A DNA stretch of 64,000 nt from Erythrobacter sp. SD-21. Lineage in GTDB: Bacteria > Pseudomonadota > Alphaproteobacteria > Sphingomonadales > Sphingomonadaceae. Positions 23,771 to 41,738 of the stretch are shown in pieces. The position numbers were made by a program, and so were the translations under genes. Location of the stretch: contig NZ_ABCG01000004.1 in NCBI RefSeq assembly GCF_000181515.1, forward strand, positions 24,001 to 88,000, written 5' to 3'. The notes beneath the pieces were generated by a model, which searched no databases, was not told the DNA's origin, and saw nothing but the letters and a program-made list of their open reading frames with translations. Numbering within the stretch: the stretch's first letter is position 1; every line of letters starts with the position of its first letter.

Positions 23771-23805
23771 CTACCGATCTTAACGCGGATCTTGGGCGAC
23801 CGTAA

Positions 23806-24823: not shown

Positions 24824-24844
24824 TAGGGTCAAAGCTGGAGCGGC

Positions 24845-26051: not shown

Positions 26052-26116
26052 TCAAGTTTAGGCAGACTAACTGAATTAAGGGAGCTTACCGGAGATAACA
26101 AGCACGTGGCCGTGGA

Positions 26117-26353: not shown

Positions 26354-26416
26354 TCCTAAAGGTCAAAACCGGGAGCTCCGGACCACATTTGAAAGCAATC
26401 CGGAGCAAGAAACCTC

Positions 26417-26626
26417 TCAATTGGCGGCGGACAGGTTCACGGCGCTGGCCTTGCCATTGCGGCCAGTCTCGACCTCGTAATTGAGGCGCTGGTCCTTATC
26501 GAGCGTTGTCATGCCTGCCGCCTGGACAGCTGAGATGTGGACGAAGCTGTCGGCAGAGCCGTCATCGGGCTGGATGAAGCCATAACCCTTGTCGCCATTG
26601 AAGAATTTTACTGTACCGGTAGTCAT
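26417..26626 (-). CDS. Cold-shock protein (CspA family)
   Basis: 69 residues, the length of single-domain cold-shock proteins. The RNA-binding motifs are KGYGFI (RNP1 region) and SFVHIS (RNP2), with start MTTGTVKFFNGDKGYGF. A GAAAGGA ribosome binding site precedes the ATG. Members bind single-stranded RNA and prevent secondary structure. It sits in the island near a second translation gene, infA. Confidence 0.93.
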   Translation of the reverse strand: MTTGTVKFFNGDKGYGFIQPDDGSADSFVHISAVQAAGMTTLDKDQRLNYEVETGRNGKASAVNLSAAN

Positions 26627-26728
26627 ATTCGCTTCCTTTCAAGAAACGGTTGTGTTCGGCGCGCGAGATTGCGAACCGAGGTTGTGCGTCAAGTCGTCAA
26701 TTGAAAGGAGTTCGTCATATTCAAGGCG

Positions 26729-26752
26729 CGAAAACCGGAATTCTCCGGTTTC
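26729..26752 (-). terminator. Palindromic hairpin, possible terminator
   Basis: The arms AAACCGGA and TCCGGTTT flank a 4-nt loop at 26732-26751, about 100 nt past the stop of the 65-codon minus-strand gene. Only a short T stretch follows, so termination is uncertain. It also lies upstream of cspA and could be an operator. Confidence 0.35.
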
Positions 26753-26848
26753 CTAACCAGGCGTCGATATCCGTCGAAATTTAACGTGAGCAGATTTGAT
26801 CGGGCGAGCTTCGTGCGAACTAGACGATCGCTTCGGAGCCCGCTTTTG

Positions 26849-27043
26849 TCAGAACCGAGTTGGAAACTGGGACTTGCTCCAGGCACAGGCTGCGGCAGCG
26901 CCCAGTCCATGCTGGAAGTCGCTGATACGACCCGCGATGCGAGAAGCCTTCGCCAGTTTGGCCAAGCGATCGTCATGGTTTGCGGCGCCGTCAGCACCCA
27001 TAAGGGCTCGCTGGTGCTCGGCATATTGCAGGTTCAGGTCCAT
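26849..27043 (-). CDS. Small conserved-looking protein of unknown function
   Basis: 64 residues from ATG 27043, supported by GGAGA 5 nt upstream. The sequence starts MDLNLQYAEHQRALMGADGA and continues with a helical stretch ending AAAACAWSKSQF. It looks like the small unnamed proteins often found near stress genes in sphingomonads. No domain can be assigned. Confidence 0.55.
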   Translation of the reverse strand: MDLNLQYAEHQRALMGADGAANHDDRLAKLAKASRIAGRISDFQHGLGAAAACAWSKSQFPTRF

Positions 27044-27299
27044 GTCAGTTCTCCGGCTGTGGCGGGAATGCTGAGGCATGGCCGCGAGTTATGTATGTCG
27101 CTCAGTCGATCATCGTTGCGACAAGACGTCGCAGCTCGGCGGTCGGCATGTGACTGGGATTTGTCCGATCCCGGTCCGCCCGCTGTGCATGGATTGCGCC
27201 ATAGCGCAGCGAAAGTTTAGGGCGCGACGTATCGCGCAGGTTCAATGCATTCATTATTCTTATGTTCGGCAGGTCCTGCCCGCCGCCTTCTTGTCAGTC

Positions 27300-27566
27300 T
27301 CAGCGCCTGTATCCGCGCTTGCGAGCACCAGCGGGTCCTTGCCCGGGTGTTCGTTCGCGGAAGACGATCCGACCCTTGGTCAGATCGTATGGCGTCATCT
27401 CGACATGTACGCGGTCTCCTACGACCGATCGGATACGATAGCGACGCATCTTGCCTGCAGTGTAACAGATCAGACGATGCTCATTATCGAGGGTGACGCC
27501 GAAACGTCCGTCGGGCAGGATCTCGTCGATCTCACCCTCCATCGTAATGAGCTCTTCCTTCGCCAA
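27300..27566 (-). CDS. infA: Translation initiation factor IF-1 (additional-type copy)
   Basis: 88 residues, TTG start with AAGGA upstream. It follows IF-1 closely: [46 protein letters not shown]. Canonical IF-1 is 72 residues and ends soon after RITYR. This one continues with [17 protein letters not shown], a basic tail. IF-1 binds the 30S A site at initiation. Its place in an island next to cspA suggests an accessory copy; the housekeeping copy would be elsewhere. Confidence 0.88.
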
Positions 27567-27734
27567 TCGGTTTTCCTTGCGTACGAAAAATCATCCGCAC
27601 GGACACATTCCGCTGCGGAGCCATGCTCCATGTAATGGAAGTGGTGCCGATATCGCGCTTGGGCGCAAACTGCGGCAATCATAATCCGTCGCAAACGACG
27701 CTAGGCAATTTCTATATAGCAGCGTACAAAAAAA

Positions 27735-27934
27735 TTACAATGGAGTTGGCCGAATGGACTGGAAGTTGTCGGCGAGCTTTCCGTTGTCGAGGAAGATTGC
27801 CTGCTGCCCGTCGCGCACGGTCAGGTTCGCGCCGTACTGGATTTCGTTATCCTCGACCGGGAAACGCCACGCCAGCTGGCCGGGCTTCTCCTCCCATTCG
27901 AGCACATCGATCAGTTGCTTGGAAACCAGCCCAT
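27735..27934 (-). pseudogene. Frameshifted, truncated SPFH-domain protein fragment
   Basis: ATG 27934 (GGAGGGA upstream) begins MGWFPSN and hits a stop. Adding one T to the TTT run restores MGWFSKQLIDVLEWEEKPGQ and continues RFPVEDNEIQYGANLTVRDG, then QQAIFLDNGKLADNF, the N-terminus of SPFH/YdjI-like proteins. Homology ends at about residue 57 and the frame stops at 27735. So the gene has both a one-base deletion and loss of its 3' portion. The break marks the distal island edge. Confidence 0.7.
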
Positions 27935-28040
27935 CTGCGTCCCTCCGTTTTGCGCGACATAGCCCGCGCTCTGCGGAACCTAACCAAGCGCAGGAGAGGA
28001 AACAATTGCTACCCGGGCCAAGACTGTCGAAATTCCTTGT

Positions 28041-29351
28041 TCAGGCGGTTCCGTACTTGGTTTCGACTTCGATCCCGGATTCCTTGAGGAAGCCGGTTGG
28101 CAGGATACCGCCCACGCAAATGATGACGTAGTCGTTGGCCAGCGTCTCGATACCGTCTTCGGTGGTCAGGTCCACTTCGTCTTCGCGGATTTCCGCGACC
28201 TGGCTCTTCAGCCGCTGTTCGATCACGCCTTTCTCGACGAGTTCGATGAAGCGGTTGCGGTTCTTCTTGCGGGCACGGGCGAAAGCGTCGGAGCGGTAGG
28301 ACAGCGTGACCTTCGTGTCGCTCTGCTCGGCAATCTGGATCGCGGCCTCCAGCGCGCTGTCGCCGCCGCCCACCACTAGCACTTTGGCGCCGACATATTG
28401 TTCGGGATCGATCAGGCGATAGACGACCTTGGGCAGCTTTTCTCCTGGCACATCCAGCGTGCGCGGCGTGCCCCTGCGGCCAATGGCGAGAAGGACGGTT
28501 TTGGCTTCGATATCGCCCTTGCTGGTTTCGAGACGGAAGCCGGTCGCGGTCTTGCGCACGGCCTCGACGTTGACGCCGGTGCGTATCTGGAGACCGGTCT
28601 TTTCGACCACGCCCTGCCAGAAGGAAATCAGCTCTTCCTTCTGGACCTCGCCGAATTTTACCGTTCCGATGATCGGCAATTCGGCGGGCGAGGTCATGAC
28701 CATTTTCCCGCGCGGGAACTGCGCCACCGTGCCGCCGAGGTCCGACTGGTCGAGCAGCACGTAGTCCAGCTTGCGTTCGATCGCGCCGAGCCCTGCGGAA
28801 ATGCCCGCCGGGCCGCTGCCGACGATGGCGATGTCATGATGCCCGGGCGCATTGGGCAGGCTGGCGATTTTCTGGGCCGCAAAGCCGATCGCCTGGCGTC
28901 CCTGTTCGATGGCGTTCTTGACCAGTCCCATCCCGCCCAGTTCACCGGCGATGAAGATGCCCGGCACGTTGGTTTCGAACTCGGGGGAGAGCGGCGGGAT
29001 GTCGACGCCGCGTTCCTCGGTTCCGAAGACGAGATCAATGGCGTCGAAAGGGCAGGCGGCCTGGCACGCGCCGTGCCCGACGCAGGAGGTCGGCTCCACC
29101 AGTGCGGCCTTGCCGTCGATCAGGGCGAGGATCTTCTTTTCAGGGCAAGCGATGACGCAGGCCCCGCAGCCAAGGCACAGGTCGGGGTTGATTAATGGAT
29201 GGAGCGAAGGCGGATGCGCGAGCCCCGCCTGGAGATTGTCTTCCAGGATCGCACGCGCCTTGGCTGACCGCTTTCGCTTATAGAGGCTCCACACAAGCCA
29301 TATCAGGAACAGCGGGACCAGATAGACGAGTTCGAGTTGCCAGGTCGGCAT
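28041..29351 (-). CDS. Membrane-anchored ferredoxin-flavin NAD(P)H oxidoreductase
   Basis: 436 residues from ATG 29351. An N-terminal membrane helix (about 5-24) is followed by two ferredoxin motifs: CLGCGACVIACP (normal four Cys) and CVGHGACQAACP, in which the second Cys is His. A TNVPGIFIAGELGG segment, usually found at the C-terminal end of such flavoproteins, comes next. Then a thioredoxin-reductase-like fold has FAD motif VGSGPAG and NAD(P) motif VGGGDSA. The redox CxxC of thioredoxin reductase is absent. It probably moves electrons between NAD(P)H and the cytochromes or a quinone. Only 5 nt separate it from the TPR gene. Confidence 0.85.
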   Translation of the reverse strand: MPTWQLELVYLVPLFLIWLVWSLYKRKRSAKARAILEDNLQAGLAHPPSLHPLINPDLCLGCGACVIACPEKKILALIDGKAALVEPTSCVGHGACQAACPFDAIDLVFGTEERGVDIPPLSPEFETNVPGIFIAGELGGMGLVKNAIEQGRQAIGFAAQKIASLPNAPGHHDIAIVGSGPAGISAGLGAIERKLDYVLLDQSDLGGTVAQFPRGKMVMTSPAELPIIGTVKFGEVQKEELISFWQGVVEKTGLQIRTGVNVEAVRKTATGFRLETSKGDIEAKTVLLAIGRRGTPRTLDVPGEKLPKVVYRLIDPEQYVGAKVLVVGGGDSALEAAIQIAEQSDTKVTLSYRSDAFARARKKNRNRFIELVEKGVIEQRLKSQVAEIREDEVDLTTEDGIETLANDYVIICVGGILPTGFLKESGIEVETKYGTA

Positions 29352-29356
29352 GGCGG

Positions 29357-30403
29357 TCAGGGAACTCCTACCTCGCTCGCGGTCGCGTTGACGAGGGCTA
29401 GGCCCTGACTGTTGCCTGCCAGCGCCTTTCGCGCAGTGGCGAGGTCGGCCTTCGCCTGCTCGGCCTGTCCGCGGACCATGCGCGACCGGATGAGACGCGC
29501 CCAGCCTTCGGGATCGTCGGGATTGGACTTGAGGCGCGTAGCAAGGCCCTCGACCATTTTCTCGATCATCGCTTCCTGTTCCGAAGGCGGGAGCGAGTTT
29601 GCCGCCTGCACGGTTGCCGCATCGAGCGCCGGCGGCTGACCGGTCATGGACGGTGGGGGGCTGGCGTTGAGGCGGCCGGAGACATCCGTACCGAGTTCGC
29701 CCGCCAGTTGGTTTATGTCGCGGCGTACGTCGGCCTGCCAGGGGGCGTCGGGCGAGGCGGAGTTGGCGAGGTCGATCCACAGGTCGAGCGCCTCCTGCTG
29801 CCGGCCCTGCTGCGCCAGCAAGCGCCCGCGAAAATAGCGCGCGCGCGGTTCGGTGGGGTCGATAGCCAGCGCTTGCTCAAAGGCCTGCCGGGCGTCGCGC
29901 GTTACCTCTCCCTTGGCCAGCGCCACGAGCGCTTCGCCATAGCCAGACCGGGCCGCAGCGCTCTGCGGCAGCAATTCTATCGCGCGCTCGAAAGGAGCGA
30001 TCGCCTCTTGTGGCCGGTTGGTCATGAGATAGGACCAGCCCAGCATCCGGAAGCCTTCACCGTCCTCGGGGTTTGCCTCGAGCCGGGCGGCAAGCCGTTC
30101 GATCATGGTGTCGACGTCTTCAAGTTGCTGGCTGTTCTGGTTGAGCGCGATCGCACTACCCGGCGCTGCGCCGGTGCCGTCGTCGTCGGGCTTGATGAGC
30201 AGGACGGCCAGAGTCGCAGCGACGAGCACCCCGGCCCCGATCAACAGCACGCGCGTGCGGTCGAAGTTCAGCTTCGGCGTATCGACACCGGCTCCCCCGT
30301 CCGAGGAAGCATTCGCACTAGCCGTCTGGCTTTGTTGCCATAGGCGCATGCCGACGATGCCGACGGCGATCCCGGCAAGGGCGGTCAGGATTGTAGCTAG
30401 CAC
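29357..30403 (-). CDS. CcmI/CycH-like TPR protein
   Basis: 348 residues from GTG 30403 (GGGAG 7 nt upstream). Two membrane helices lie near residues 2-20 and about 50-70. Periplasmic TPR repeats follow (GWSYLMTNRPQEAIAPFERA, RARYFRGRLLAQQGRQQEAL) and a second TPR-like block at the C-terminus. CcmI presents apocytochromes to the CcmF/CcmH heme lyase. The usual CcmI membrane hairpin is also encoded, separately, at 41738, so CcmI function seems split across this locus. Divergent from the b-type cytochrome gene. Confidence 0.8.
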   Translation of the reverse strand: MLATILTALAGIAVGIVGMRLWQQSQTASANASSDGGAGVDTPKLNFDRTRVLLIGAGVLVAATLAVLLIKPDDDGTGAAPGSAIALNQNSQQLEDVDTMIERLAARLEANPEDGEGFRMLGWSYLMTNRPQEAIAPFERAIELLPQSAAARSGYGEALVALAKGEVTRDARQAFEQALAIDPTEPRARYFRGRLLAQQGRQQEALDLWIDLANSASPDAPWQADVRRDINQLAGELGTDVSGRLNASPPPSMTGQPPALDAATVQAANSLPPSEQEAMIEKMVEGLATRLKSNPDDPEGWARLIRSRMVRGQAEQAKADLATARKALAGNSQGLALVNATASEVGVP

Positions 30404-30579
30404 TCCACATCTCCCAATTCCTACACTGTGCGACCGCTTCTGGCTCTTTGCCACTTGGCCTGCACTATACTAACGCGCACATTCTTGGCCATGAAATATC
30501 CGAAAACTTGCGTGATGATTGGTCGTTACGTAAATGCGCTGCGGTCGCGCGATGCTCAGAAGGAGCCTAATTTGCCTCC

Positions 30580-31437
30580 ATGGATACGATAACGACCCAG
30601 CCAGTTCGCGGTATTCGTCGCCTACGCCTGCGCCCTGGGCAGCTGGAGCGGGTGCTTTCGGTCCTTGTCCTCGCCGGCGTCCTCGCGGCGCTGATCTATG
30701 GTTTCATCAACAGGGACGACCCGAGGCTCGATCCTGAAGACGGGATCGGATACTGGCTTGGCATAATCGGCAGTTCGATGATGCTGATCCTGCTCATCTA
30801 TCCCTTGCGCAAGCGCAATCCCAAGCTGCGCAGTCTGGGATCGGTCGGGTTCTGGTTCCGCTTTCACATGCTCCTCGGGCTGCTGGGCCCTGTGACGATC
30901 CTTTATCATTCGCGTTTCGGCTGGGGCTCGCTGAACAGCGCGACGGCGCTCGGGGCGATGATCATCGTTGCCTCGAGCGGCCTAATCGGCCGCTTTCTCT
31001 ATTCACGGGTTCACCGGGGCTATTCTACCCGGACCATCGCCATCCGAGACCTGAAAAGAGAAATGGATGCATTGCTCGACGATCTCGAGCACGAGCATAT
31101 CGGCGACAGCTATATCATGGATACGCTGCACGATCTCGAGGACCGCGCCATCGCTTCGGGGAAATCCTTCTGGGCGGGCGCCCGATCCTTCGTGAGCCTG
31201 CGTCTCAGATCGCTGATTATCGGGCGCGAGGTGCGAAGGCAGTTGCAGGACCCCGACGCGGAACATCGGCAGGCGTTGCTGCAGGGGTTGGAGGACTTTT
31301 TCCGTGCGACCAGGCGCGCTTCGAGCTTTGCCTTCTACAGCCGTCTCCTGCGATTCTGGCATTATCTGCACCTGCCGCTTTTCATCCTGCTGGTCGCAGC
31401 AGTCACTCTCCACATCGTCGCGGTCCACCAATACTGA
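30580..31437 (+). CDS. b-type cytochrome-like integral membrane protein
   Basis: 285 residues. Hydrophobic helices are near residues 25-45, 60-78, 88-110, 120-140 and 255-282. His residues sit within or at the ends of helices (FRFHMLLGLLGPVTILYH; HYLHLPLFILLVAAVTLHIV), as in di-heme b561- or ferric-reductase-like proteins. A soluble charged stretch lies between the last two helices. It overlaps the start of the 24-heme cytochrome by one base. It is the natural candidate for passing electrons from quinol or the flavoprotein to the periplasmic cytochrome. Confidence 0.75.
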   Translation: MDTITTQPVRGIRRLRLRPGQLERVLSVLVLAGVLAALIYGFINRDDPRLDPEDGIGYWLGIIGSSMMLILLIYPLRKRNPKLRSLGSVGFWFRFHMLLGLLGPVTILYHSRFGWGSLNSATALGAMIIVASSGLIGRFLYSRVHRGYSTRTIAIRDLKREMDALLDDLEHEHIGDSYIMDTLHDLEDRAIASGKSFWAGARSFVSLRLRSLIIGREVRRQLQDPDAEHRQALLQGLEDFFRATRRASSFAFYSRLLRFWHYLHLPLFILLVAAVTLHIVAVHQY

Positions 31438-33212
31438 TGCGCGGCCTGCGCGCCTTTATTGCTCTCTTGCTGCTGATGGTCGCAGCGCCGGCCCTTGGAC
31501 AGACGATCATCGAGCGGCTGGTTACGCCCGGCCCCCTGTCGCAGCCGCACGCAAAGCTCGAGGACAGCTGCAACTCGTGCCACACGAATTTCCGCAAGGA
31601 GGCGCAGAACTCCAAGTGCCTCGCCTGCCACACCGATGTCGCGTCGGACATCCGGGCCGGTGCAGGCTATCACGGGCGCAGTTCCAACGCACGGCGCAGC
31701 ACCTGCAAGAGCTGCCATACCGAGCATAAGGGCCGGCGCTTCGACATCGTCCGCCTCAACACGCGAAGCTTCAATCACGACCTCACCGATTTCCCGCTGC
31801 GGGGCGGCCATGCAAAGGTGTCTTGCGCTTCGTGCCACACGGGAGGGAAAGCCTATCGCCTCGCGCCGACGACCTGTCGCGGGTGCCACGAAAGCGATGA
31901 TCCGCACAAGGGCCGCCTCGGACCGCGCTGCCAGGACTGCCACCAGGTTTCCGACTGGAAATCCCTGAAGCCCTTCGATCACTCCAAGACCGGATATCCC
32001 CTCACCGGCGCGCATTCGCGTACGAGTTGCATGTCGTGCCACAAGGGCCAGCGATGGGAGGGGCTGACGACCAGTTGCTATGGCTGCCACAAGCAGGACG
32101 ACGCCCACAATGGATCGCGCGGAACCAATTGTTCGAGCTGCCATACGACGTCGTCCTGGCGCCAGGTCAAATTCGACCATGACACGACAGGCTTCTCACT
32201 TATCGGCGCGCATGCGCAGGCAAGTTGTACCTCGTGTCACGGGGCAAACAATTCGATCAAGAACCCGCCGACGACTTGCTACGGTTGCCACCAGAAGGAC
32301 GATTCCCACGAGGGCGCCAACGGGAAGCAGTGCGAGGATTGCCACACGCCCCGATCCTGGACCCGGATCCAGTTCGATCACGACCGGCTGACCGATTTCC
32401 CCCTGCGCGGGGCGCATCGGCAGGCGACTTGCGAGAGCTGCCATGTCCAGCCACCAAGGGTTGCCGCCCCGCCGACCACCTGTTTCGGTTGTCATGAGGA
32501 GGACGACAGTCACAAGGGCGGCAACGGCACCGATTGCGCGCGCTGCCATACGGAGACCGATTGGGAAGCGGTGGAATTCGACCACGCGACCATGACCGGC
32601 TTCCCCTTGCTCGGGAAGCATGCGGAGGCGCGCTGCGAGGACTGCCACGTAGAGGCCTCGGACCAGGTGAAGCTCGTGCCGGAGTGCGCCTCCTGCCACT
32701 ATGAGGACGACGTCCACAAGGCGGAACTGGGCCCCTCATGCGGGCGCTGTCACGATTCTAATGACTGGACTACCAACATCAGCTTCGACCATGCGCTGAC
32801 CAGTTTCCCGCTACTTGGCAAGCATGCCGATATCGATTGCACGGATTGCCACGCGGACCAGACATTCACCGTCAAGGGGCCGCAATGCGCCGATTGCCAT
32901 GTGGACGAGCACCACGAAGGCCGTCTCGGCACGCCCGCGCAATGCGGCGATTGCCACAACGCCAACGACTGGAAGGCGTGGAGTTTCAATCACGATACGC
33001 AGACGCAATTCCCCCTCACCGGCAAGCACAAGGGGCTGGTGTGCGGGTCCTGTCACGCGAGAGCGGGGGACCCGGCCGAACTATCAGCGACTTGCGCCGA
33101 TTGTCACCGCCGCGATGACGTCCACCGCGGGGAATTCGGGACCGATTGCCAGCGTTGTCATGTGACGGATGACTGGTCGAAGGTCTCCTTACCCGAGGAT
33201 CGCAGCAAGTAA
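31437..33212 (+). CDS. 24-heme c-type cytochrome (cytochrome c3-like repeats)
   Basis: 591 residues with a signal peptide (cleavage near ALGQ). I count 24 CxxCH motifs, one per about 24 residues. From about residue 145 a module of about 69 residues repeats. It has three hemes and three spaced His: CxGCHxxDDxHxG, then CxxCHxxxxW, then FDHxxTxFPLxGxHxxxxCxxCH. The His in DDxH, FDH and GxH are likely distal ligands, giving bis-His hemes. Exported and probably periplasmic or surface-exposed. Between the membrane cytochrome and the 35-heme protein, it should carry electrons across the periplasm. Confidence 0.9.
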   Translation: MRGLRAFIALLLLMVAAPALGQTIIERLVTPGPLSQPHAKLEDSCNSCHTNFRKEAQNSKCLACHTDVASDIRAGAGYHGRSSNARRSTCKSCHTEHKGRRFDIVRLNTRSFNHDLTDFPLRGGHAKVSCASCHTGGKAYRLAPTTCRGCHESDDPHKGRLGPRCQDCHQVSDWKSLKPFDHSKTGYPLTGAHSRTSCMSCHKGQRWEGLTTSCYGCHKQDDAHNGSRGTNCSSCHTTSSWRQVKFDHDTTGFSLIGAHAQASCTSCHGANNSIKNPPTTCYGCHQKDDSHEGANGKQCEDCHTPRSWTRIQFDHDRLTDFPLRGAHRQATCESCHVQPPRVAAPPTTCFGCHEEDDSHKGGNGTDCARCHTETDWEAVEFDHATMTGFPLLGKHAEARCEDCHVEASDQVKLVPECASCHYEDDVHKAELGPSCGRCHDSNDWTTNISFDHALTSFPLLGKHADIDCTDCHADQTFTVKGPQCADCHVDEHHEGRLGTPAQCGDCHNANDWKAWSFNHDTQTQFPLTGKHKGLVCGSCHARAGDPAELSATCADCHRRDDVHRGEFGTDCQRCHVTDDWSKVSLPEDRSK

Positions 33213-33403
33213 CTGGGATGCCAGTCCGGTTTATTGGGCTTATAGCCGACGAAGCGAGCCCCGCTTGCGACGAACCGATAAGCGGACTCTATCGCTATGC
33301 CGGTCAGTCTGACAGTTTGCAGCGCGAGTGGCTGGGGGCTGCCGCTTGATGAAAGAAGATCATGTCGGTTTTCTCGGGTCGTCGAGTTGCCGAGGGCACC
33401 CCA

Positions 33404-35920
33404 GTGTTGAACAAGCTTTCGACACTAATCCTGATGACCTTGGCCAGCTTTGTGCTTCTGGCCGCCACTTCGTTCGGCCAGCAGGAATCGCGTTTCGAAA
33501 ACTTCGATCACTTTTCCACCGGGTTCCCGCTTACAGGTCAGCACGCGACCGTCCGATGCGAATCCTGCCACATAGACGGGCAATTCAAGGGCACGCCGAC
33601 ACGCTGTGCGGACTGCCACAATTCGGTGAGAGCGGAAGGCAAGCCCGCCAGCCACCCGCAAACGCAGGCCAATTGCGATAGCTGCCACGCCACCAGCCAA
33701 TGGGCGATCGCCCGCTTCGACCACAGCGGCGTCACCGAACGCTGCGCTTCCTGCCACAACGGAATCCAGTCGAGCGGCAAGCCGGCCAACCACGTGCCGA
33801 GCTCGCAAGAATGCGAAAACTGCCACACCACGTCCAACTGGACCAACGCTACCTTCGATCACAGCGCGGTCACCGGCAATTGCGTGTCCTGTCACAACGG
33901 GACAACTGCGACCGGCAAGCCGGCCAATCATATCCCTTCGAGCAATGTCTGCGAAGATTGTCACCGGACCACCGCCTGGGTCCCCGCAAGCTTCGACCAC
34001 GCAGGGATCACTGGCAATTGCTCAAGTTGCCACAATGGGACAACTGCGACCGGCAAGCCCGCCAACCACATCCCCTCAAGCAATGTCTGCGAAGACTGCC
34101 ACCGGACGATGTCCTGGGTCCCGGCAGAGTTCAGCCATGCTGGGATTACGGGAAATTGCACCAGTTGCCACAACGGCACCACGGCGCCCGGCAAGTCGTC
34201 CAGCCACCCTCCGACAAGCAACACCTGCGAAGCGTGCCACAACACGAGCGACTGGTCGCAGGTCCGGTTCGATCATCGCGCCACCAGCGCTACCTGCTCG
34301 ACCTGCCACAACGGCACGATTGCCGAGGGCAAGGGGCCGACCCACATCCAGACGACCGCACAATGCGACAGTTGTCACACAACCAATGCGTGGAGTCCCG
34401 CGAGATTCTCGCATGAAGGGATAACCGGCAATTGCTCTTCCTGTCACAACGGCAGCACGGCTACCGGCAAGCACGCCAATCATGTCAGTTCCACCAATGC
34501 CTGCGAGGATTGCCACACGACCAACGCGTGGAGCCCGGCTCGCTTCGATCACAGCGCCGCTTCTGGTTCGTGTTTCTCCTGCCACAATGGCACGACGGCG
34601 ACGGGCAAGCATGCGAACCACATTGCCTCGTCCAACGCCTGCGCCGATTGCCATGTCACCAACGGCTGGACACCTGCGCGCTTCGACCATTCGGGCGTAA
34701 CCGGGTCCTGCTTCAGTTGCCACAACGGGACGACGGCGACCGGCAAGCACGCAACGCATGTCGCATCCGCCAACACCTGCGACGATTGCCATACGACCAA
34801 TGCATGGGTCCCCGCCCGGTTCGATCACAGCGCGGTCACCGGGACCTGTTTCAGTTGCCACAATGGCACGACGGCAACCGGTAAGCATGCCGCGCACGTC
34901 GCCTCGACGAATTCCTGCGCCGATTGCCACTCCACCAATGCATGGGTTCCGGCCAATTTCGATCACAGCTCGGTCACCGGGACCTGTTTCAGTTGTCACA
35001 ACGGCACCACCGCAACGGGCAAGCATCCGGCCCACGTCTCTTCGACCAACACCTGCGACGATTGCCACACGACTAACGCCTGGGTGCCGGCGCGCTTCGA
35101 CCACAGCGCTGCGACGGGGACCTGCTCGAGCTGCCACAACGGCACGACCGCCACCGGCAAGCACCCTGCGCACATCGCTTCGAGCAATTCCTGCGGCGAT
35201 TGCCACACCACCAACGCATGGACCCCGGCCAATTTCAACCACGACAACATATCGGGGTCCTGTTCCTCCTGTCACAACGGCACGACCGCCACCGGCAAGC
35301 ATGCGGCCCATCTCAACACCACGAACACCTGCGAAGACTGTCACCGCGTGACCAGCTGGGTTCCTGCGAACTTCAATCACGCGGCGGCCAACGGCACCTG
35401 TTCCAGCTGTCACAACGGAACGGCGGCGCCCGGCAAGACGCCGTCGCATCCCAACACGACCAACCAGTGCGATTTCTGCCATGTGACGAGCAGCTGGGCT
35501 ACGGTGCGCATGGACCATTCGCAGGCGCTCGGCACCTGTTCCAGCTGCCACAACAACACTCTGGCGACCGGCAAGCCGCCTTCGCATATCGCCACCACGG
35601 CGCAGTGCGATTCGTGTCACAGCACCAACGCCTGGACTCCGGCCAGCTTCAGCCACGATGGCGTGACGGGCAATTGCGTCAGCTGCCACAACGGGACGAC
35701 CGCCACCGGCAAGCCCCCAACGCACCCGGGCACCACGAATGTCTGCGAAAATTGCCACCGGACGACCAACTGGACGACGATCAGGATGTCGCATGGTGAT
35801 GTCACAGGTCGTTGTGATGCCTGCCACAACGGCACGATCGCCGAGGGCAAGCCCAACGATCATCCCAACACGTCGCAGGATTGCGGCGCCTGCCACGACA
35901 CCCGGAACTGGGACGACTAG
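33404..35920 (+). CDS. 35-heme c-type cytochrome built of 23-residue single-heme repeats
   Basis: 838 residues from GTG 33404 (GAGGG 6 nt upstream, signal peptide directly after); ATG 33362 would add 14 residues. I count 35 CxxCH motifs. After the first, the remaining 34 are exactly 23 residues apart with no insertion or deletion. Each unit is C1-x-x-C4-H5 with His at position 17, alternating NGTTATGKxxxH and TTNAWxPARFDH. So each heme has a proximal and a candidate distal His. The N-terminal part (FDHFSTGFPLTGQH...CESCH) matches the triheme module of the 24-heme protein. It looks like a rigid heme wire, periplasmic or extracellular. Confidence 0.92.
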   Translation: MLNKLSTLILMTLASFVLLAATSFGQQESRFENFDHFSTGFPLTGQHATVRCESCHIDGQFKGTPTRCADCHNSVRAEGKPASHPQTQANCDSCHATSQWAIARFDHSGVTERCASCHNGIQSSGKPANHVPSSQECENCHTTSNWTNATFDHSAVTGNCVSCHNGTTATGKPANHIPSSNVCEDCHRTTAWVPASFDHAGITGNCSSCHNGTTATGKPANHIPSSNVCEDCHRTMSWVPAEFSHAGITGNCTSCHNGTTAPGKSSSHPPTSNTCEACHNTSDWSQVRFDHRATSATCSTCHNGTIAEGKGPTHIQTTAQCDSCHTTNAWSPARFSHEGITGNCSSCHNGSTATGKHANHVSSTNACEDCHTTNAWSPARFDHSAASGSCFSCHNGTTATGKHANHIASSNACADCHVTNGWTPARFDHSGVTGSCFSCHNGTTATGKHATHVASANTCDDCHTTNAWVPARFDHSAVTGTCFSCHNGTTATGKHAAHVASTNSCADCHSTNAWVPANFDHSSVTGTCFSCHNGTTATGKHPAHVSSTNTCDDCHTTNAWVPARFDHSAATGTCSSCHNGTTATGKHPAHIASSNSCGDCHTTNAWTPANFNHDNISGSCSSCHNGTTATGKHAAHLNTTNTCEDCHRVTSWVPANFNHAAANGTCSSCHNGTAAPGKTPSHPNTTNQCDFCHVTSSWATVRMDHSQALGTCSSCHNNTLATGKPPSHIATTAQCDSCHSTNAWTPASFSHDGVTGNCVSCHNGTTATGKPPTHPGTTNVCENCHRTTNWTTIRMSHGDVTGRCDACHNGTIAEGKPNDHPNTSQDCGACHDTRNWDD
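33614..35915 (+). repeat. 138-bp coding tandem repeat, 17 copies in register
   Basis: The TGCCACAA-type segment (Cys-His-Asn codons) recurs at 33614, 33752, 33890, 34028, 34166, 34304, 34442, 34580, 34718, 34856, 34994, 35132, 35270, 35408, 35546, 35684 and 35822, always 138 bp apart. Each unit encodes 46 residues and two hemes. Neighbouring copies near 33.9-34.1 kb are nearly identical at the DNA level, as expected after recent unit duplication. The edges are more diverged. Confidence 0.95.
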
Positions 35921-35941
35921 CCCCATGAATGTCGAGAGGAG

Positions 35942-38833
35942 ATGCGTTTGCAAAAGCACGTCTGGCTGAAAAGCGTCGCCACGATCGCGCTGACAATCGG
36001 TACGGCGACCAGCCTTGCAGGAACGGCCCATGCACAAGCCGTTACCGATCAGACGCTTTCCGATCTGCGCGTGGAGAGGGTGGGAACCTGCACGACGCTG
36101 ACGGTCGAATTCAACATCCGCCTGCAGATCCTCAGCTACTATCCCAGCCGGCCCGGGCGCGAATTGTACATCCGGGTCCGGCCACTCGATCCTTCGGCCA
36201 ATCTCGCAGCTCGTGACGCGCTGCGCCCGCCGGGCAGCCTGCCCGAATTGCGCTCTATCGAATACGACGGCACCGATCCGGGCGGTCCGCTGGTCTCGCT
36301 CTATTTCCAGCAGGACATGCAGTTCGAGGTCGAGGGGGGACCCCGGCCGGATTCGCTGGTCATCAAGCTTTTTCAGCCCGGAGAAGACCGCGCTTGCTCG
36401 CTGGCGCAGGCGCCGGCGGCCTCGACGGTCGTTGCTACGCCGGGGCCAGGCCCAGCCGTGACCGTTGCGGCCGAGCCGGATATTCCCCCCGGCCGTTTCG
36501 TCGTCAACGCGATCTCCGCTCCCGGTTCGATCGGCGAACTATCGCGCGAGCAGCGGGCCGCCATCGACGACCGTGTGGCGTACGACAGCCCGGTTGATCG
36601 CGAGGGCGAGGAATGGCACCGGTTGCGGCTCGGTTTCTACGAGACCAAGGAAGAAGCCGATGCGGCCGCTGCCAGTTTGGCGGACCTGTTTCCGGGTGCC
36701 TTCGCGATCGAGGTCTCGCCCGATGAGAGGGAAGAGGCCATTGCCACCCGCATGCCGATCGCTCCACCTGCCGACGTGAGCCTGGCCGGCGGAGAGGCCG
36801 GCATTCCGCCCGGGCTCTATATCGTCAACGCCCTTTCCAGCCCGGCCGAACTCGGCGATCTAAGCCCCGAGCAACAGGGAGCGATCAGCGGCCGCGTTGC
36901 CTATGACAGCGTTGTCGAGCGCGACGGCGAGGAATGGCATCGCCTGCGTGTCGGCTTCTTCGAGACCAAGGAGCAGGCCGAGGCCGCCGCCGCGCAGCTC
37001 GAGGAGGTCTTTCCGGCCGCCTGGACCTTGCGCATCTCGCCCGAGGAGCGCGCCGAGGGGATCGCTGCCCGCATGGACACGGGCGAGCTCATCGTCTCGC
37101 GCACCACGCGCCCTTCTATCGTTGCCAGTCCGGAGCAATCGGCCGAAGTCGATCGGCTGATCCTCGAGGCTGAAGCGGCCATTGCGCTTGGCAATAACGA
37201 CCGCGCTATCCAGCTGCTTACCAACGCGCGCCGCCTGCCCGAGGCGCAGAACACGCCGCGCGCGATCGAACTGCTTGGTCTCACTCGCGAGCGCAAGCAG
37301 CAGGTCGCGCAGGCCCAGGCGGAATACGAGGAATATTTGCGCCGCTATCCCGAGGGCGAGGACGCCGAACGCGTGCGCCAGCGGCTCGCCGCCTTGTCCG
37401 GTCCGGTCCAGACCGCGGAACTGCGCGAGGCGGAGGGCGGCAATCCTGCGGCATGGACGTGGGACGTGCGCGGCAGTTTCTCGCAATTCTACTATCGCGA
37501 CCAGAGCCGGACGCGCTTCGTTGACGCCGCCGTGCCTGAAGAGGACCCCGACGAGGACGACCAGGTCAATCTCAACCAGCTCCTTACCTCCGCCGACATA
37601 GCGATCATGGCGGGCAACGACCGCGGGCAATTCGAGGCCCGCGCTTCGGGATCCTATGTGTGGAATTTCCGCTCGGGTGGGCGCGATTTGAAGGCGATCA
37701 CTGCGCTCTATGTGGGCGCTTCCGACGCTCGGAGCGGTATCCAGTCGCGCTTTGGACGCCAGACGCGCAATTCGGGCGGCGTATTCGGGCGCTTCGACGG
37801 CACCTGGGTCGGTTGGCAGGCGGACGAAAAGGTCAAGGTGAACGCGGTCGCGGGTTTTCCTGTCCTCACTTCGCGCCAGACCCGCATTCTGGACGAACGC
37901 CGCTTCTACGGCGCCAGCATCGACTATGGGGAGCGCAGCGATGCGGTGCAGGCGACAGCCTACTTCCTCAACCAGGAAGCGCGCGGGGGTTTTGTCGACC
38001 GCCGCTCGATCGGAGCCGAACTTCGGCTGCGCAAGGACCGTTTCAACGCCTTCGGGCTGCTCGATTACGACATTCATCACGAGGAAGTAAACCTCGCGCT
38101 GGCGACGCTTGCCTATACGGCGGAGGATGGCTCCAACCTCAGCATGACGGCGGATTATCGCCGCTCGCCGCTGCTGACGACCAGCAACGCGCTGATCGGC
38201 CAGATCGGGGTGATCGACGCGCTGCCCTTCACCGATCTGCGCGACCTTTTGCGGTTCTATACCGAGGACGAGATTTACCGGATCGCGCGCGATCGGACGC
38301 TCGTGACCAAGTCGCTCACCACCGCCTATTCGCGGCCCATCACCGAAAAACTGCAGGCGAATTTCGATTTCACCCTGACCGAAACCAGCGGCTCGCCGCT
38401 CATCCCTGCGACCGACGGGACGCAGGAAATCCCGGCGCTCGCCAGCACCGGAACCGAGTACTATTTCGGTGCCCAGGTGGTGGGCACCGGCTTCCTCTGG
38501 GACAACGACATCTACATCCTTTCGGGCCGCTACGCCGACACGCAGCGTTCCCACAGCTACACAGTCGACTTCAACGCACGCGTGCCGCTGACCGACAAGG
38601 TGCGCCTGACACCGCGGCTGCGGTACGGGCGGCGCGAGGACCGGATTTCGCAGACGACCTACGAACAGTTCCAGCCCAGTCTGCGCGTCAACATCTATCC
38701 CTTCCGCCACGGCGAGATTGAACTGGAGGCCGGAATGAACTTTGCCTCGCAGCGCATCCGCGATTTGATGGGTGTCTCGACATTCGACGAGACGGGGGTC
38801 ATATTCACTGCCGGCTACCGGCTTGATTTCTGA
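35942..38833 (+). CDS. Outer-membrane-barrel-like protein with SPOR-like and TPR modules
   Basis: 963 residues. A signal peptide ends near AHAQ. A beta-rich domain (about 35-150) is followed by two similar segments of about 85 residues (GRFVVNAISAPGSIGELS... and GLYIVNALSSPAELGDLS..., each with EEWHRLRxGFxETKE) that look like SPOR domains. A TPR-like helical part follows (about 400-480). From about 500 the sequence alternates short strands and ends YRLDF, typical of an outer-membrane barrel. AGGAG touches ATG 35942; TTG 35948 is an alternative start. As the gene after the two cytochromes it is the candidate porin sheath of a porin-cytochrome conduit. Confidence 0.75.
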   Translation: MRLQKHVWLKSVATIALTIGTATSLAGTAHAQAVTDQTLSDLRVERVGTCTTLTVEFNIRLQILSYYPSRPGRELYIRVRPLDPSANLAARDALRPPGSLPELRSIEYDGTDPGGPLVSLYFQQDMQFEVEGGPRPDSLVIKLFQPGEDRACSLAQAPAASTVVATPGPGPAVTVAAEPDIPPGRFVVNAISAPGSIGELSREQRAAIDDRVAYDSPVDREGEEWHRLRLGFYETKEEADAAAASLADLFPGAFAIEVSPDEREEAIATRMPIAPPADVSLAGGEAGIPPGLYIVNALSSPAELGDLSPEQQGAISGRVAYDSVVERDGEEWHRLRVGFFETKEQAEAAAAQLEEVFPAAWTLRISPEERAEGIAARMDTGELIVSRTTRPSIVASPEQSAEVDRLILEAEAAIALGNNDRAIQLLTNARRLPEAQNTPRAIELLGLTRERKQQVAQAQAEYEEYLRRYPEGEDAERVRQRLAALSGPVQTAELREAEGGNPAAWTWDVRGSFSQFYYRDQSRTRFVDAAVPEEDPDEDDQVNLNQLLTSADIAIMAGNDRGQFEARASGSYVWNFRSGGRDLKAITALYVGASDARSGIQSRFGRQTRNSGGVFGRFDGTWVGWQADEKVKVNAVAGFPVLTSRQTRILDERRFYGASIDYGERSDAVQATAYFLNQEARGGFVDRRSIGAELRLRKDRFNAFGLLDYDIHHEEVNLALATLAYTAEDGSNLSMTADYRRSPLLTTSNALIGQIGVIDALPFTDLRDLLRFYTEDEIYRIARDRTLVTKSLTTAYSRPITEKLQANFDFTLTETSGSPLIPATDGTQEIPALASTGTEYYFGAQVVGTGFLWDNDIYILSGRYADTQRSHSYTVDFNARVPLTDKVRLTPRLRYGRREDRISQTTYEQFQPSLRVNIYPFRHGEIELEAGMNFASQRIRDLMGVSTFDETGVIFTAGYRLDF

Positions 38834-38881
38834 TCGCGCCGCGCCGGAACGGAAACGGACCGCATTGGGGAGGGGGTTTCT

Positions 38882-40822
38882 ATGATTGCCGAGGCCGGAC
38901 TTGCAGCCCTGTGGCTGGCCGCCGCGCTGACTATTGCGCAGCTTGCGCTGGGCGTGCTCGGCCTGCGCCGTGCCGGGGAGGGGCTGGCCGAGGCAATCAT
39001 TCCCGTTTCCGTGCTGCAGGCTCTGCTGGTCACCTTCAGTTTCGTGTGTCTGGTGACGCTGTTCATGCGCTCCGACATGTCCGTGCTGCTGGTCGCCGCG
39101 AACAGCCATTCGGCCAAGCCCATGATCTACAAATTCGCCGGCACATGGGGCAATCACGAGGGCTCTATGCTGCTGTGGGTGACGATCCTCAGCATAGCGG
39201 GGGCGACCATCGCTGCGTTCGAGCGCAAGCTGCGGACCGACACCAAGGTCGCGACCCTAGCCGCGCAGGCGGCAATCGCGCTCGGCTTCTACGGATTCTT
39301 GCTGCTATCCTCCAACCCTTTCGAGCGGATCGAAAACGTGATCGAGGGGGCGGGACTCAACCCCCTGCTGCAGGACCCCGGCCTCGCCTTCCACCCACCC
39401 ACGCTTTACGCGGGCTATGTCGGCATGTCGGCGGCGTTCTCCTTCGCGGTTGGCGCGCTGGTCACCCGCGATGTCGGCCCGGAATTCGCCCGTGCGATGC
39501 GGCCGTGGATCCTCGCCTCGTGGATATTCCTCACCATCGGGATCGTGGCGGGCAGTTACTGGGCCTACTACACGCTGGGCTGGGGCGGCTGGTGGTTCTG
39601 GGACCCGGTCGAGAACGCCTCCCTCATGCCATGGCTGGCAACGACCGCGCTTCTCCATTCGGTCACGGTCCTCGCCACGCGCGACGGCTTGCGGGCGTGG
39701 ACGATCATGCTCGCCGTGCTGGCCTTCTCGATGTCGATGGTCGGCACGTTCCTCGTGCGCTCGGGCATCCTCACCAGCGTCCATTCCTTCGCCGTCGATC
39801 CGGAGCGCGGGGTTTTCATCCTCGGCCTGCTGGTGTTCTACATTTGCGGCGCCCTTGCGCTGTTCGCGCTGCGGATCGGGACCGTGCGCGAAGGCAGCCG
39901 GTTCGACCTTGTCAGCCGCGAATCCGCGCTGGTGATGAACAATCTGCTGCTCACCGTGATCCTTGTGGTGGTGCTGTGCGGCACGCTCTATCCGCTCGCG
40001 CTGGAGCTTGCGAATGGCGAGAAGATTTCGGTCGGCGCGCCTTATTTCAACGCGGTGGCGGGGCCGCTGGCGGTAATTCTCATGCTGATACTTGCGGCAG
40101 GACCGCTGCTGCGCTGGCGGACCGACAGCACGAAGAAGCTCGTCGACCGCATTGCCCTCGCGCTCGTGTCCGGGGCGGGGGCGGCGTTGCTGCTGGCGGT
40201 GTTTGCCGGAGACCTTGGCATCCTGCCCTATCTCGGCCTCGTTGTGGCCGCAGTCGTCGGTGTGGCGAGCGTCGCGCCCTTGTGGAAGCGCAATTTGCGC
40301 CGTACGCCGCTCTTCACCTGGGGCATGGTCATCGCACACCTCGGCTGCGCAGTCTCCATCGTCGGCATGGCCAGTGAGAGCGCGTTTACGCAAGAGAACC
40401 TCGTCGCGATGGAAATCGGCGAGACGCAGCGCATCCACGATTTCGAGGTCACGCTGGAGGATGTGCGCGAGGCGCCGGGACCCAATTACGCCGCGCTCGA
40501 AGCGGTAGCCGTCGTGCGCCGCGAGGGTGCCGAGCCGCTGCGCATGGTCCCGCAGCTGCATCAGTTCTCCGACCCGGTGATGCAGACCAACCAGGCCGCC
40601 ATCGAGACCTATTGGAACGGCCAGCTCTACATCGTAGTGGGCGACCGCTCGATCGGCAACCGCTTCCTGATGCGGCTGTGGTGGAAGCCGTGGGTGACCC
40701 TTATCTGGATCGGCGGGTTGATGATCGCGCTGGGGGGGCTGCTGGCGCTGCTCGGGCGCGTGCGGCGCGATATCGTGAGCCGCAAACCGGCTGCACCGGA
40801 ATTGAAAGGAGCGCCGGCATGA
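38882..40822 (+). CDS. ccmF: Cytochrome c heme lyase subunit CcmF
   Basis: 646 residues, the normal CcmF length, with many transmembrane helices. The heme-handling WWD motif is clear (GWGGWWFWDPVENASLMPWL), and conserved His residues occur in GTWGNHEGSM, FHPPTLY and the LLHSV loop. CcmF with CcmH ligates heme to CxxCH apocytochromes in the periplasm. It lies 48 nt after the barrel gene, and its stop overlaps ccmG (ATGA). Linked maturation genes fit the very high heme demand of this locus. ccmABCDE are not in the window. Confidence 0.95.
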   Translation: MIAEAGLAALWLAAALTIAQLALGVLGLRRAGEGLAEAIIPVSVLQALLVTFSFVCLVTLFMRSDMSVLLVAANSHSAKPMIYKFAGTWGNHEGSMLLWVTILSIAGATIAAFERKLRTDTKVATLAAQAAIALGFYGFLLLSSNPFERIENVIEGAGLNPLLQDPGLAFHPPTLYAGYVGMSAAFSFAVGALVTRDVGPEFARAMRPWILASWIFLTIGIVAGSYWAYYTLGWGGWWFWDPVENASLMPWLATTALLHSVTVLATRDGLRAWTIMLAVLAFSMSMVGTFLVRSGILTSVHSFAVDPERGVFILGLLVFYICGALALFALRIGTVREGSRFDLVSRESALVMNNLLLTVILVVVLCGTLYPLALELANGEKISVGAPYFNAVAGPLAVILMLILAAGPLLRWRTDSTKKLVDRIALALVSGAGAALLLAVFAGDLGILPYLGLVVAAVVGVASVAPLWKRNLRRTPLFTWGMVIAHLGCAVSIVGMASESAFTQENLVAMEIGETQRIHDFEVTLEDVREAPGPNYAALEAVAVVRREGAEPLRMVPQLHQFSDPVMQTNQAAIETYWNGQLYIVVGDRSIGNRFLMRLWWKPWVTLIWIGGLMIALGGLLALLGRVRRDIVSRKPAAPELKGAPA

Positions 40823-41349
40823 TGCGCAAACCGCTCCTCTGGCTGCCCATGGTGCTCGGCCTCGGGCTGTTCGTGCTGTTCTACCTCGGGCTCGAAAATC
40901 CCGGTCAGCGGATCATCAATTCCAACGTCATCGGCCGGGAACTGCCCGAATTCAGCACGCAGGTCGCCGTCGAAGGCGTGGAGCCGGTCAGCAGCGAAAA
41001 TCTGCGCGACGGAAACCCGCGGCTGGTCAATGTCTTCGCCAGCTGGTGCGCGCCGTGCATTCAGGAGATCCCGGTGCTGCTGCGCCTGCGCGCGCAGGGG
41101 ATCGAAATCGACGGCATAGCGGTGCACGACCGGCCCGCCGACATTTCGCGCTTCCTCGCGGAGAATGGCAATCCCTACCGCCGTATCGGGCTTGACAACG
41201 AAGGCCGCAGCCAGCTGGAAATCGGATCGTCGGGTGTGCCGGAAACCTTTGTGATCGATCGCGAGGGGCGGATCGTCTACCAGCACATCGGCATCGTGAC
41301 CGAGCAGGACATTCCCGAGATTCTCGCCCGGCTCGGGGGTACGGGATGA
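40819..41349 (+). CDS. ccmG: Thiol-disulfide oxidoreductase CcmG/DsbE
   Basis: 176 residues. A membrane anchor (about 5-24) precedes a thioredoxin fold with active site WCAPC (FASWCAPCIQE) and the cis-proline GVPETF. CcmG reduces apocytochrome CxxCH disulfides before heme attachment. Start overlaps ccmF and stop overlaps ccmH, both by 4 nt. The longer frame from 40612 lies inside ccmF and is not used. Confidence 0.93.
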   Translation: MMRKPLLWLPMVLGLGLFVLFYLGLENPGQRIINSNVIGRELPEFSTQVAVEGVEPVSSENLRDGNPRLVNVFASWCAPCIQEIPVLLRLRAQGIEIDGIAVHDRPADISRFLAENGNPYRRIGLDNEGRSQLEIGSSGVPETFVIDREGRIVYQHIGIVTEQDIPEILARLGGTG

Positions 41350-41738
41350 TGCGGCGGCTGCTCCTTGCGATCTTTCTCCTGACAGCAGCCCCGCTTGCGG
41401 CGCAGGACTATGCGCATGAAGCGCTGGCCGATCCGGCGCAGGAAGCCGCCGCAATCGAATTGATGGATTCGCTGCGCTGCGTGGTGTGCCAGGGCCAGCC
41501 GATTTCAGGAAGCAACGCCGACATAGCCGGCGATATGCGGCGTATTGTGCGCGAGCGGATCGCCGCGGGGGAAACGCCCGAGCAAGTGCGCGAATGGCTG
41601 ATTACCCGCTATGGTGATTTCGTGAGCTTCAAGCCGGTGGTGAAGCCGGCGACCTGGGGGCTGTGGCTGGTCCCGCTGGCGGCGCTGCTGCTCGGGCTTG
41701 TGCTGGTCTCGCGCCGGGTCAGGCTGAGGAGGAACTGA
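41346..41738 (+). CDS. ccmH: Cytochrome c maturation protein CcmH
   Basis: 130 residues, a typical short CcmH. A signal or anchor helix is followed by the redox motif LRCVVCQGQ and the three-helix domain (ERIAAGETPEQVREWLITRYGD in two parts), then a C-terminal membrane helix near 100-122. It works with CcmG and CcmF in heme ligation. Ends in a one-base overlap with the next ORF (TGATG). Confidence 0.93.
   Translation: MMRRLLLAIFLLTAAPLAAQDYAHEALADPAQEAAAIELMDSLRCVVCQGQPISGSNADIAGDMRRIVRERIAAGETPEQVREWLITRYGDFVSFKPVVKPATWGLWLVPLAALLLGLVLVSRRVRLRRN

What the first reader, a model, noticed from the sequence alone, without database searches (positions are those of the whole stretch)
33404..35920. 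35-heme cytochrome with an exact 23-residue heme period
After the first CxxCH, 34 hemes follow at a constant spacing of 23 residues, each unit having CxxCH at 1-5 and His at 17. Two alternating unit types give a 46-residue, 138-bp repeat that runs 17 times without a single insertion or deletion. This is far more regular than the multiheme cytochromes I know (MtrC, OmcS, tetraheme c3). It suggests a straight or helical heme stack acting as a molecular wire whose length can change by unit duplication.
Basis: seen in the sequence. Interest (0 to 1): 0.92.

Follow-up and report, generated by a model that had tools for sequence, protein, structure and literature searches.

The report
35-heme wire protein of PCC3 cluster
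This gene encodes a cytochrome with 35 evenly spaced hemes, very probably one arm of a known but still untested bacterial electron conduit (PCC3) that links the inner membrane to the outside of the cell, and its relatives show that such wires lengthen two hemes at a time.

Summary
In detail: 35 CXXCH motifs, first interval 16, then 33 intervals of exactly 23 residues, in two alternating unit types. It is not a new kind of system. The gene lies in a porin-cytochrome cluster of the type named PCC3 (He et al. 2017, PMC5566968): IMP, 24-heme MHC1, 35-heme MHC2, outer-membrane protein. The genome carries the MopA gene of the Mn(II) oxidizer Erythrobacter sp. SD-21; He et al. mention an Mn(II)-oxidizing Erythrobacter with PCC3, so this member is probably already in their table, which I could not see.

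New, as far as my searches show: (1) MHC2 length is quantised: 44 of 44 complete 23/24-type proteins, window included, have an odd CXXCH count (at least 30 changes on the tree, all even); (2) MHC1 counts are multiples of three in 88 of 88 and vary far less (4 versus 27 changes on the same 41 rows), as expected of a fixed periplasmic spacer versus a free outer arm; (3) a ferredoxin-FAD reductase-like protein occurs in exactly the genomes that hold PCC3 (2 of 199; 6 of 398), a likely fifth component. Electron direction and structure remain unknown; AlphaFold models were too weak.

The parts
33404..35920 (+). MHC2: 35-heme cytochrome (PCC3 'extracellular' MHC type)
   Evidence: 35 CXXCH, 33 intervals of 23; Pfam Cytochrome_C7 157.4 bits; second MHC of the cluster as in relatives
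33500..33619 (+). N-terminal adaptor: hemes 1-2 spaced 16, with FDH...GQH, the same pattern as an MHC1 triheme unit
   Evidence: spacing; distal His at -16 and -5 as in MHC1 units; conserved in A2, 43 rows
33605..35920 (+). array of 17 A/B two-heme units (46 aa, 138 bp), last one truncated
31437..33212 (+). MHC1: 24-heme cytochrome, triheme unit (17-18-33 spacing), PCC3 'periplasmic' MHC type
   Evidence: 24 CXXCH, spacing; 48 Cys = 24 x 2; homolog found in 99 of 100 loci
30580..31437 (+). IMP: inner-membrane protein with WX3HX13H twice and SGXXG, probably b-type
   Evidence: W92 H96 H110, S133 G134 G137, W260 H264 H278 invariant in 9 sequences
35942..38833 (+). outer-membrane protein: two SPOR stretches, weak TPR, C-terminal ~480 aa barrel-like part ending in YRLDF
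   Evidence: Pfam SPOR 55.9 bits; 40 of 47 complete homologous ORFs end in F; barrel not proven
28041..29351 (-). ferredoxin-FAD/NAD(P) reductase-like protein with an N-terminal hydrophobic stretch, probable fifth PCC3 component
   Evidence: Pfam Fer4_10 and Pyr_redox_3; one full CX2CX2CX3C motif, the second site with His for one Cys (sequence); co-occurrence with the PCC3 IMP (17, 63)
29357..30454 (-). TPR protein with CcmH/CycH TPR domain (CcmI-like)
   Evidence: Pfam TPR_CcmH_CycH 70.2 bits, cut-off 42
38882..40822 (+). CcmF, one of two copies in the genome
   Evidence: PF16327 at G000:C16:63821-64759 and a second on C11
40819..41349 (+). CcmG/DsbE-like thiol-disulfide protein (start inferred)
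   Evidence: sequence by eye; homologs in 33 of 100 loci
41346..41738 (+). CcmH-like protein
   Evidence: sequence by eye; homologs in 26 of 100 loci

Best explanation
The 35-heme protein is the second multiheme cytochrome of a PCC3-type trans-envelope electron conduit. Shown: the gene cluster, the motifs, the array architecture, the counting rules in relatives and the co-occurrence with a ferredoxin-FAD reductase-like protein. Inferred: quinone- or NAD(P)H-linked electrons exchange at the inner membrane through the IMP (b hemes) and that reductase; the 24-heme MHC1, a stack of triheme units of nearly fixed number, carries them across the periplasm; MHC2 docks end-on in or on the outer-membrane protein through its MHC1-like first two hemes and extends the chain outside as a two-heme-repeat wire whose length is free to evolve. 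Scaling by MtrA (80 A for 10 hemes, PMC7198977, passage) gives roughly 200 A for MHC1 and 300 A for MHC2. The SPOR part of the outer-membrane protein probably holds the complex on peptidoglycan. Direction of flow is undecided.
For: Gene order IMP-MHC1-MHC2-outer-membrane protein with the components published for PCC3. A strain that He et al. name as a PCC3 carrier, Bradyrhizobium sp. STM 3843, turned up as L068 with a homologous IMP (39%) and an 18-heme MHC1. IMP motifs. Residue/heme ratio about 23; MHC2 rich in T/S/A/G (14.5/11.1/10.7/7.6%); heme repeats. MHC1 88 of 88 multiples of three (89 of 89 with the 9-heme piece of L118), 23/24-type MHC2 44 of 44 odd. On 41 rows MHC1 changes 4 times, MHC2 27 times. 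One conserved distal His per heme. Reductase-like protein in exactly the PCC3 genomes (2 of 199; 6 of 398). A second ccmF copy at the locus.
Against: No localisation, redox or genetic data. In Sideroxydans ES-1 both PCC3 clusters were lower on Fe(II) than thiosulfate (PMC8788666), and the extracellular MHC of one cluster (Slit_1448) scores 0 in all eight proteome columns shown (PMC12016527). AlphaFold models weak: pLDDT 60.9 and 69.7, pTM 0.29 both; no PDB fold match. The barrel signal is modest (6 alternating 9-mers versus 2.9 +/- 1.6 in shuffles). Four, not five, hydrophobic regions above threshold in the IMP, and He et al. find the IMP motifs in PCC4 too. 8 of 72 loci with 5 kb upstream lack the reductase-like gene there (two of these genomes have it elsewhere). 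MHC1 and MHC2 heme numbers correlate weakly (r 0.40).
Confidence: 0.8

Rival explanations
1. Both cytochromes stay in the periplasm: MHC2 is a redox capacitor or a lateral wire rather than a surface wire, and the outer-membrane protein serves another purpose.
For: MHC2 has no lipobox (all 70 Cys are in CXXCH); no exporter gene was noticed in the cluster (none was searched for); extracellular placement in the literature is by prediction (PMC5566968).
Against: MHC2 length varies from 11 to 57 hemes while MHC1 stays at 18-24 in the same 41 rows, which suits an unconstrained outer arm; gene clustering with the outer-membrane protein.
Confidence: 0.15
2. MHC2 is a self-assembling filament subunit (a nanowire like OmcS, OmcE or OmcZ) and its array is the filament core.
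For: Long repetitive heme chain; extracellular cytochrome filaments exist (review PMC12954529, abstract start, passages).
Against: No fold match to solved cytochromes, though with a weak model; one chain would reach about 300 A without polymerising; an outer-membrane-protein homolog lies in 61 of 100 loci, which points to a membrane complex.
Confidence: 0.07
3. The complex is specifically a Mn(II) or Fe(II) oxidase in this organism.
For: The genome has the MopA gene of the Mn(II) oxidizer SD-21; PCC3 was found through iron oxidizers.
Against: MopA, a heme peroxidase capable of Mn(II) oxidation (PMC6247904), already offers an explanation for Mn(II); PCC3 is lower on Fe(II) in ES-1; He et al. 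know most carriers in their examples not as metal oxidizers; the reductase-like partner fits either direction.
Confidence: 0.2
4. The regularity is an assembly artefact of collapsed or expanded tandem repeats.
For: Tandem arrays are prone to it.
Against: Units are diverged (best pair 82.6%), longest exact repeat 29 nt, reading frame intact, and the same architecture occurs in dozens of other assemblies.
Confidence: 0.01

Closest known systems
PCC3 porin-cytochrome complex (He et al. 2017, PMC5566968; Hoover et al. 2023, PMC10734462)
   Same: Gene set IMP, periplasmic-type MHC, extracellular-type MHC, outer-membrane protein; IMP motifs; many hemes; heme repeats; low residue/heme ratio
   Different: Exact 23-residue period without a single 24; no C-terminal CX3CH/CX4CH cap, which 34 of 44 complete proteins have; SPOR domains and the reductase-like partner not mentioned in the text I read
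MtrCAB / DmsE-family MtrA
   Same: Linear multiheme wire with an outer-membrane protein; 6r2q_A is the best solved-structure match of the MHC2 profile, E 5.8e-09 (the file names another protein, its identity as MtrA is recalled)
   Different: DmsE model scores 143.7 bits, below its cut-off of 192.2; 35 and 24 hemes instead of 10 and 10; no lipobox in MHC2 (that MtrC is a lipoprotein is recalled)
Dodecaheme c7-type 'nanowire' cytochrome GSU1996 (3ov0; name recalled)
   Same: c7-type heme repeat; best solved match of the MHC1 profile, E 1e-06
   Different: 12 hemes (recalled); nanowire_3heme model below cut-off (37.1 of 40 for MHC2, 24.2 of 40 for MHC1)
PCC4 (He et al. 2017)
   Same: IMP with the same motifs
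   Different: Porin with three periplasmic MHCs and no extracellular MHC; here two MHC genes
6-7-heme cytochrome plus IMP paralog in the window's own family
   Same: IMP homolog, about 30% identical, beside a 6-7-heme cytochrome
   Different: The one scanned (L006) carries an FHA domain; no second MHC within the 1.5 kb held

Membership tests
PCC3 | IMP of about 300 aa with two WX3HX13H motifs and SGXXG (shared with PCC4) | tested here: met
   285 aa; W92 H96 H110, S133 G134 G137, W260 H264 H278, all invariant in 9 sequences
PCC3 | IMP with five transmembrane helices | tested here: inconclusive
   Hydropathy gives four regions above threshold; the region of the first HX13H is below it
PCC3 | Two multiheme cytochromes with very many hemes (published medians 34 and 21) | tested here: met
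   35 and 24
PCC3 | Residue/heme ratio 22-39 and heme-containing repeats | tested here: met
   813/35 = 23.2 and 570/24 = 23.8 from the lengths (signal cleavage assumed); repeats
PCC3 | Homology to a published carrier | tested here: met
   Bradyrhizobium sp. STM 3843, named in He et al., is L068: IMP 39%, MHC1 45% identical in the best segments
PCC3 | Porin with predicted beta-barrel | tested here: inconclusive
   Gene in the right place; 40 of 47 complete ORFs end in F; alternating pattern 1.9 SD above shuffles; no barrel predictor at hand
PCC3 | One MHC extracellular, one periplasmic | not testable with these tools
   Needs localisation; only signal-peptide-like N-termini seen
PCC3 | Extracellular electron transfer activity | not testable with these tools
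   PMC12442390 (2025) calls PCC3 functionally unverified (passage)
PCC4 | Porin plus three periplasmic MHCs, no extracellular MHC | tested here: not met
   Only two heme ORFs of 5 or more CXXCH in window 28001-40000, with 24 and 35
DmsE/MtrA family (TIGR03508) | Score above curated cut-off | tested here: not met
   143.7 against 192.2 bits
Cytochrome_C7 (PF14522) | Score above Pfam cut-off | tested here: met
   157.4 bits, cut-off 24.8
OmcS/OmcE/OmcZ-type filament cytochromes | Fold match to solved filament subunits | tested here: inconclusive
   No Foldseek match, but model pLDDT 60.9

The most novel reading that the evidence does not exclude
PCC3 is a five-component, NAD(P)H-connected trans-envelope wire made of two quantised modules: a triheme-unit cytochrome whose unit number (6-9) is set by the width of the periplasm, a molecular ruler, and a diheme-unit cytochrome outside the outer membrane whose length evolves freely by duplication of whole two-heme units, so that its CXXCH count stays odd in the 23/24-type members.
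Probability: 0.45. Interest if true: 0.75.

Novelty: new member of a known kind. Interest (0 to 1): 0.55.

Why it matters
PCC3 occurs in many proteobacteria but its function and structure are untested. The unit rules give exact, checkable predictions (MHC1 in steps of three hemes and tied to periplasm width, MHC2 in steps of two), and the reductase-like partner supplies a genetic handle and a possible link from the wire to NAD(P)H. A natural series of wires of 11 to 57 evenly spaced hemes on one repeat would allow conduction to be measured as a function of length.

Tried and rejected
Structure: AlphaFold2 of a 13-heme MHC2 fragment (43 rows) and of MHC1 (27 rows) gave pLDDT 60.9 and 69.7, pTM 0.29, no PDB match, and no coordinates reach the Python box, so heme spacing could not be measured; the lengths in the report are scaled from MtrA.

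Rejected: chance, misassembly, membership in the DmsE/MtrA family, plasmid carriage of the IMP (one 25% match among 72,556 plasmid records). A general odd-number law for all PCC3 was rejected: among 14 complete MHC2 of other spacing types 5 are even (34, 22, 46, 38, 70), and published counts for Gallionellaceae include even ones (28, 14, 12). If the CX3CH/CX4CH cap heme is counted, the capped proteins have an even total; the rule concerns CXXCH.

Of 80 MHC2-like ORFs 22 were cut by the end of the DNA; of the 58 complete, 14 were of other spacing types (L112 among them runs into N) and 44 remained, the window included. Three of the 44 (L060, L083, L124; 5, 9, 7 hemes) may be broken genes; without them 41 of 41 are odd. 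MHC1: 2 of 91 cut; L118 is a 9-heme piece of a broken gene. Seven further heme ORFs fitted neither pattern and were not counted (L079, L110 twice, L112 twice, L118, L124 with 36). My extraction of the L101 IMP failed, so L101 is off the tree. The relatives are the 80 closest of 296 found plus 14 from genome searches, so other groups, Gallionellaceae among them, are under-sampled. The reductase searches scored at most 8 or 4 first-look candidates per genome, so misses are possible; the two samples share the window's genome and others.

Full report
Observation. The ORF at 33362..35920 holds 35 CXXCH motifs, the first interval 16 residues and the next 33 exactly 23. Units alternate between two types, x(AB)17. 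All 70 cysteines belong to heme motifs. Each of hemes 3-35 has a His 7 residues upstream, and heme 1 has His at -16 and -5, so 35 candidate distal ligands match 35 hemes; 7 further His lie at -10. The 46-residue units are diverged (best 82.6% at DNA level) and the longest exact repeat is 29 nt, so this looks like an old, stable array and not an assembly artefact.

What it is. The neighbours on the same strand are a 285-aa membrane protein (30580), a 24-heme cytochrome (31437) and, downstream, a 963-aa outer-membrane protein (35942) with SPOR and weak TPR matches, followed by ccmF-, ccmG- and ccmH-like genes. These are the components of PCC3, described by He et al. 2017 (PMC5566968; section 15 read in full, passages). 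The IMP motifs that they report, WX3HX13H twice and SGXXG, are present and invariant in nine sequences; they are shared with PCC4, which differs by having three periplasmic MHCs. They report median heme numbers of 34 and 21, up to 85, with heme repeats and residue/heme ratios of 22-39. One carrier that they name, Bradyrhizobium sp. STM 3843, was found here as L068 with a homologous IMP and MHC1. Hoover et al. 2023 (PMC10734462, passages) modelled PCC3 cytochromes as long and mostly linear, and give 10-35 hemes for the extracellular one. The family has thus been described. Pfam places the cytochrome in Cytochrome_C7; the DmsE/MtrA model matches below its cut-off.

Organism. The window's genome has an ORF of 2138 aa that starts with the gene part of the forward MopA primer, and that of the reverse primer ends at codon 969, as printed for Erythrobacter sp. 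SD-21 (PMC6247904, passages). He et al. mention an Mn(II)-oxidizing Erythrobacter sp. with PCC3. This member is therefore probably already listed in their supplement, which I could not read.

Relatives. A profile of the IMP found 296 relatives in the genome collection, of which the best 80 were kept; 20 further regions came from genome searches, 6 of them duplicates, leaving 94 loci and the window. MHC1 was recognised in 91 of these 95 (89 complete): 18 hemes in 19, 21 in 41, 24 in 27, 27 in 1, and a 9-heme piece of a broken gene in L118; all are multiples of three, matching a triheme unit of about 17-18-33 spacing. Published values of 21, 24 and 27 agree. MHC2-like ORFs numbered 80, of which 58 were complete; 44 of these, the window included, have mostly 23/24 spacing and all 44 have an odd CXXCH count, from 5 to 57, with 21 distinct values. 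On a tree of the IMP the 44 counts need at least 30 changes, all even. If parity were free at each change the chance would be about 1e-9; the changes are a parsimony minimum on a quick tree in which 39 of 91 inner branches are weak, so this is only an order of magnitude. The 14 other complete MHC2, several of them from Bradyrhizobium and from one other, unnamed family, use other periods, and 5 are even. The rule is thus one of the 23/24 subfamily.

Growth of the array. L054 and L077 contain blocks identical at DNA level four hemes apart, and others exceed 90%, which fits recent duplication of two- or four-heme blocks (assembly effects in those records cannot be excluded). The window's array shows no such recent event. 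Among the 41 complete 23/24-type arrays of 11 or more hemes it is the only one without a departure from 23 after the first interval, but L064 has a longer run, 35 intervals. In 34 of the 44 complete proteins the C-terminus is a cap with spacing near 31-22 and a further CX3CH (32) or CX4CH (L070, L073) motif; the window and nine others lack it.

Fixed and free length. On the 41 rows with both proteins complete (MHC2 of 11 or more hemes), MHC1 changes 4 times and MHC2 27 times; the coefficients of variation are 0.08 and 0.39, and the two counts correlate weakly (r 0.40). I read this as a periplasmic spacer of near fixed length and a free outer arm. This is inference; it agrees with the published placement, which rests on prediction.

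A probable fifth component. On the opposite strand, one gene away from the IMP, lies a gene for a protein with an N-terminal hydrophobic stretch, a Pfam 4Fe-4S dicluster domain (one full cysteine motif, the other with a His in place of one Cys) and a pyridine-nucleotide reductase domain (28041..29351). A homolog is within the fetched DNA in 64 of 72 loci with at least 5 kb upstream of the IMP (one of the 64, L137, is a weak 27% hit; two of the 8 without it, G239 and G552, have it on another contig). In 199 genomes of the family it occurs (E <= 1e-60) in 2, exactly the two with a strong IMP match, E <= 1e-84; the IMP search also gave 70 genomes with weaker matches, E 3e-15 or worse, an IMP paralog that sits beside a 6-7-heme cytochrome in 27 of the 28 such loci viewed (L003-L030). 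In 398 genomes of the phylum it occurs in 6, exactly the six with the IMP at E <= 1e-20. A term search of He et al.'s main text showed no such protein for PCC3, and the passages seen of four later papers describe PCC3 without it. It may pass electrons between the wire and NAD(P)H; this is inference from domains.

Other parts. SPOR passes its Pfam cut-off in the window's outer-membrane protein and in 5 of 6 homologs scanned (not L071), which suggests peptidoglycan anchoring. The genome has two ccmF genes, one here, so the locus carries heme-attachment genes of its own. PCC3 is patchy: at least 20 same-genus genomes are listed without an IMP match at E <= 1e-20.

Limits. Direction of electron flow, location, pore formation and heme geometry were not shown. 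Models were weak. Published expression argues against Fe(II) oxidation as the role in Sideroxydans ES-1 (PMC8788666, passages). That the unit rules are not in print rests on the listings in an open-access library only.

Noticed in passing
L003-L030 (28 loci; viewed): In the window's family an IMP paralog (about 30% identical) sits beside a 6-7-heme cytochrome, mostly of about 510 aa, in 27 of 28 loci; the one scanned (L006) carries an FHA domain. It may be a separate, common inner-membrane redox pair.
   Followed up: partly
window 20001-28000: GC falls to 0.57-0.58 against 0.60-0.69 elsewhere in the window, around a tRNA-Arg at 23231-23307 and an HWE-type histidine kinase at 24848-26101 (-), just before the PCC3 cluster. 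Possibly an island; no integrase was sought.
   Followed up: partly
L093 and L105 (Bradyrhizobium): MHC2 genes with at least 90 and 98 CXXCH, both cut by the end of the fetched DNA, more than the 85 reported as the largest known in PMC5566968 in 2017.
   Followed up: no
L131: Two MHC2-like genes (11 and 13 hemes) lie on either side of the outer-membrane protein gene in one cluster.
   Followed up: no
6r2q_A in the solved-structure library: The chain is labelled cystathionine beta-synthase but matches as a multiheme cytochrome; I recall 6R2Q as the MtrCAB structure, so the label seems wrong.
   Followed up: no
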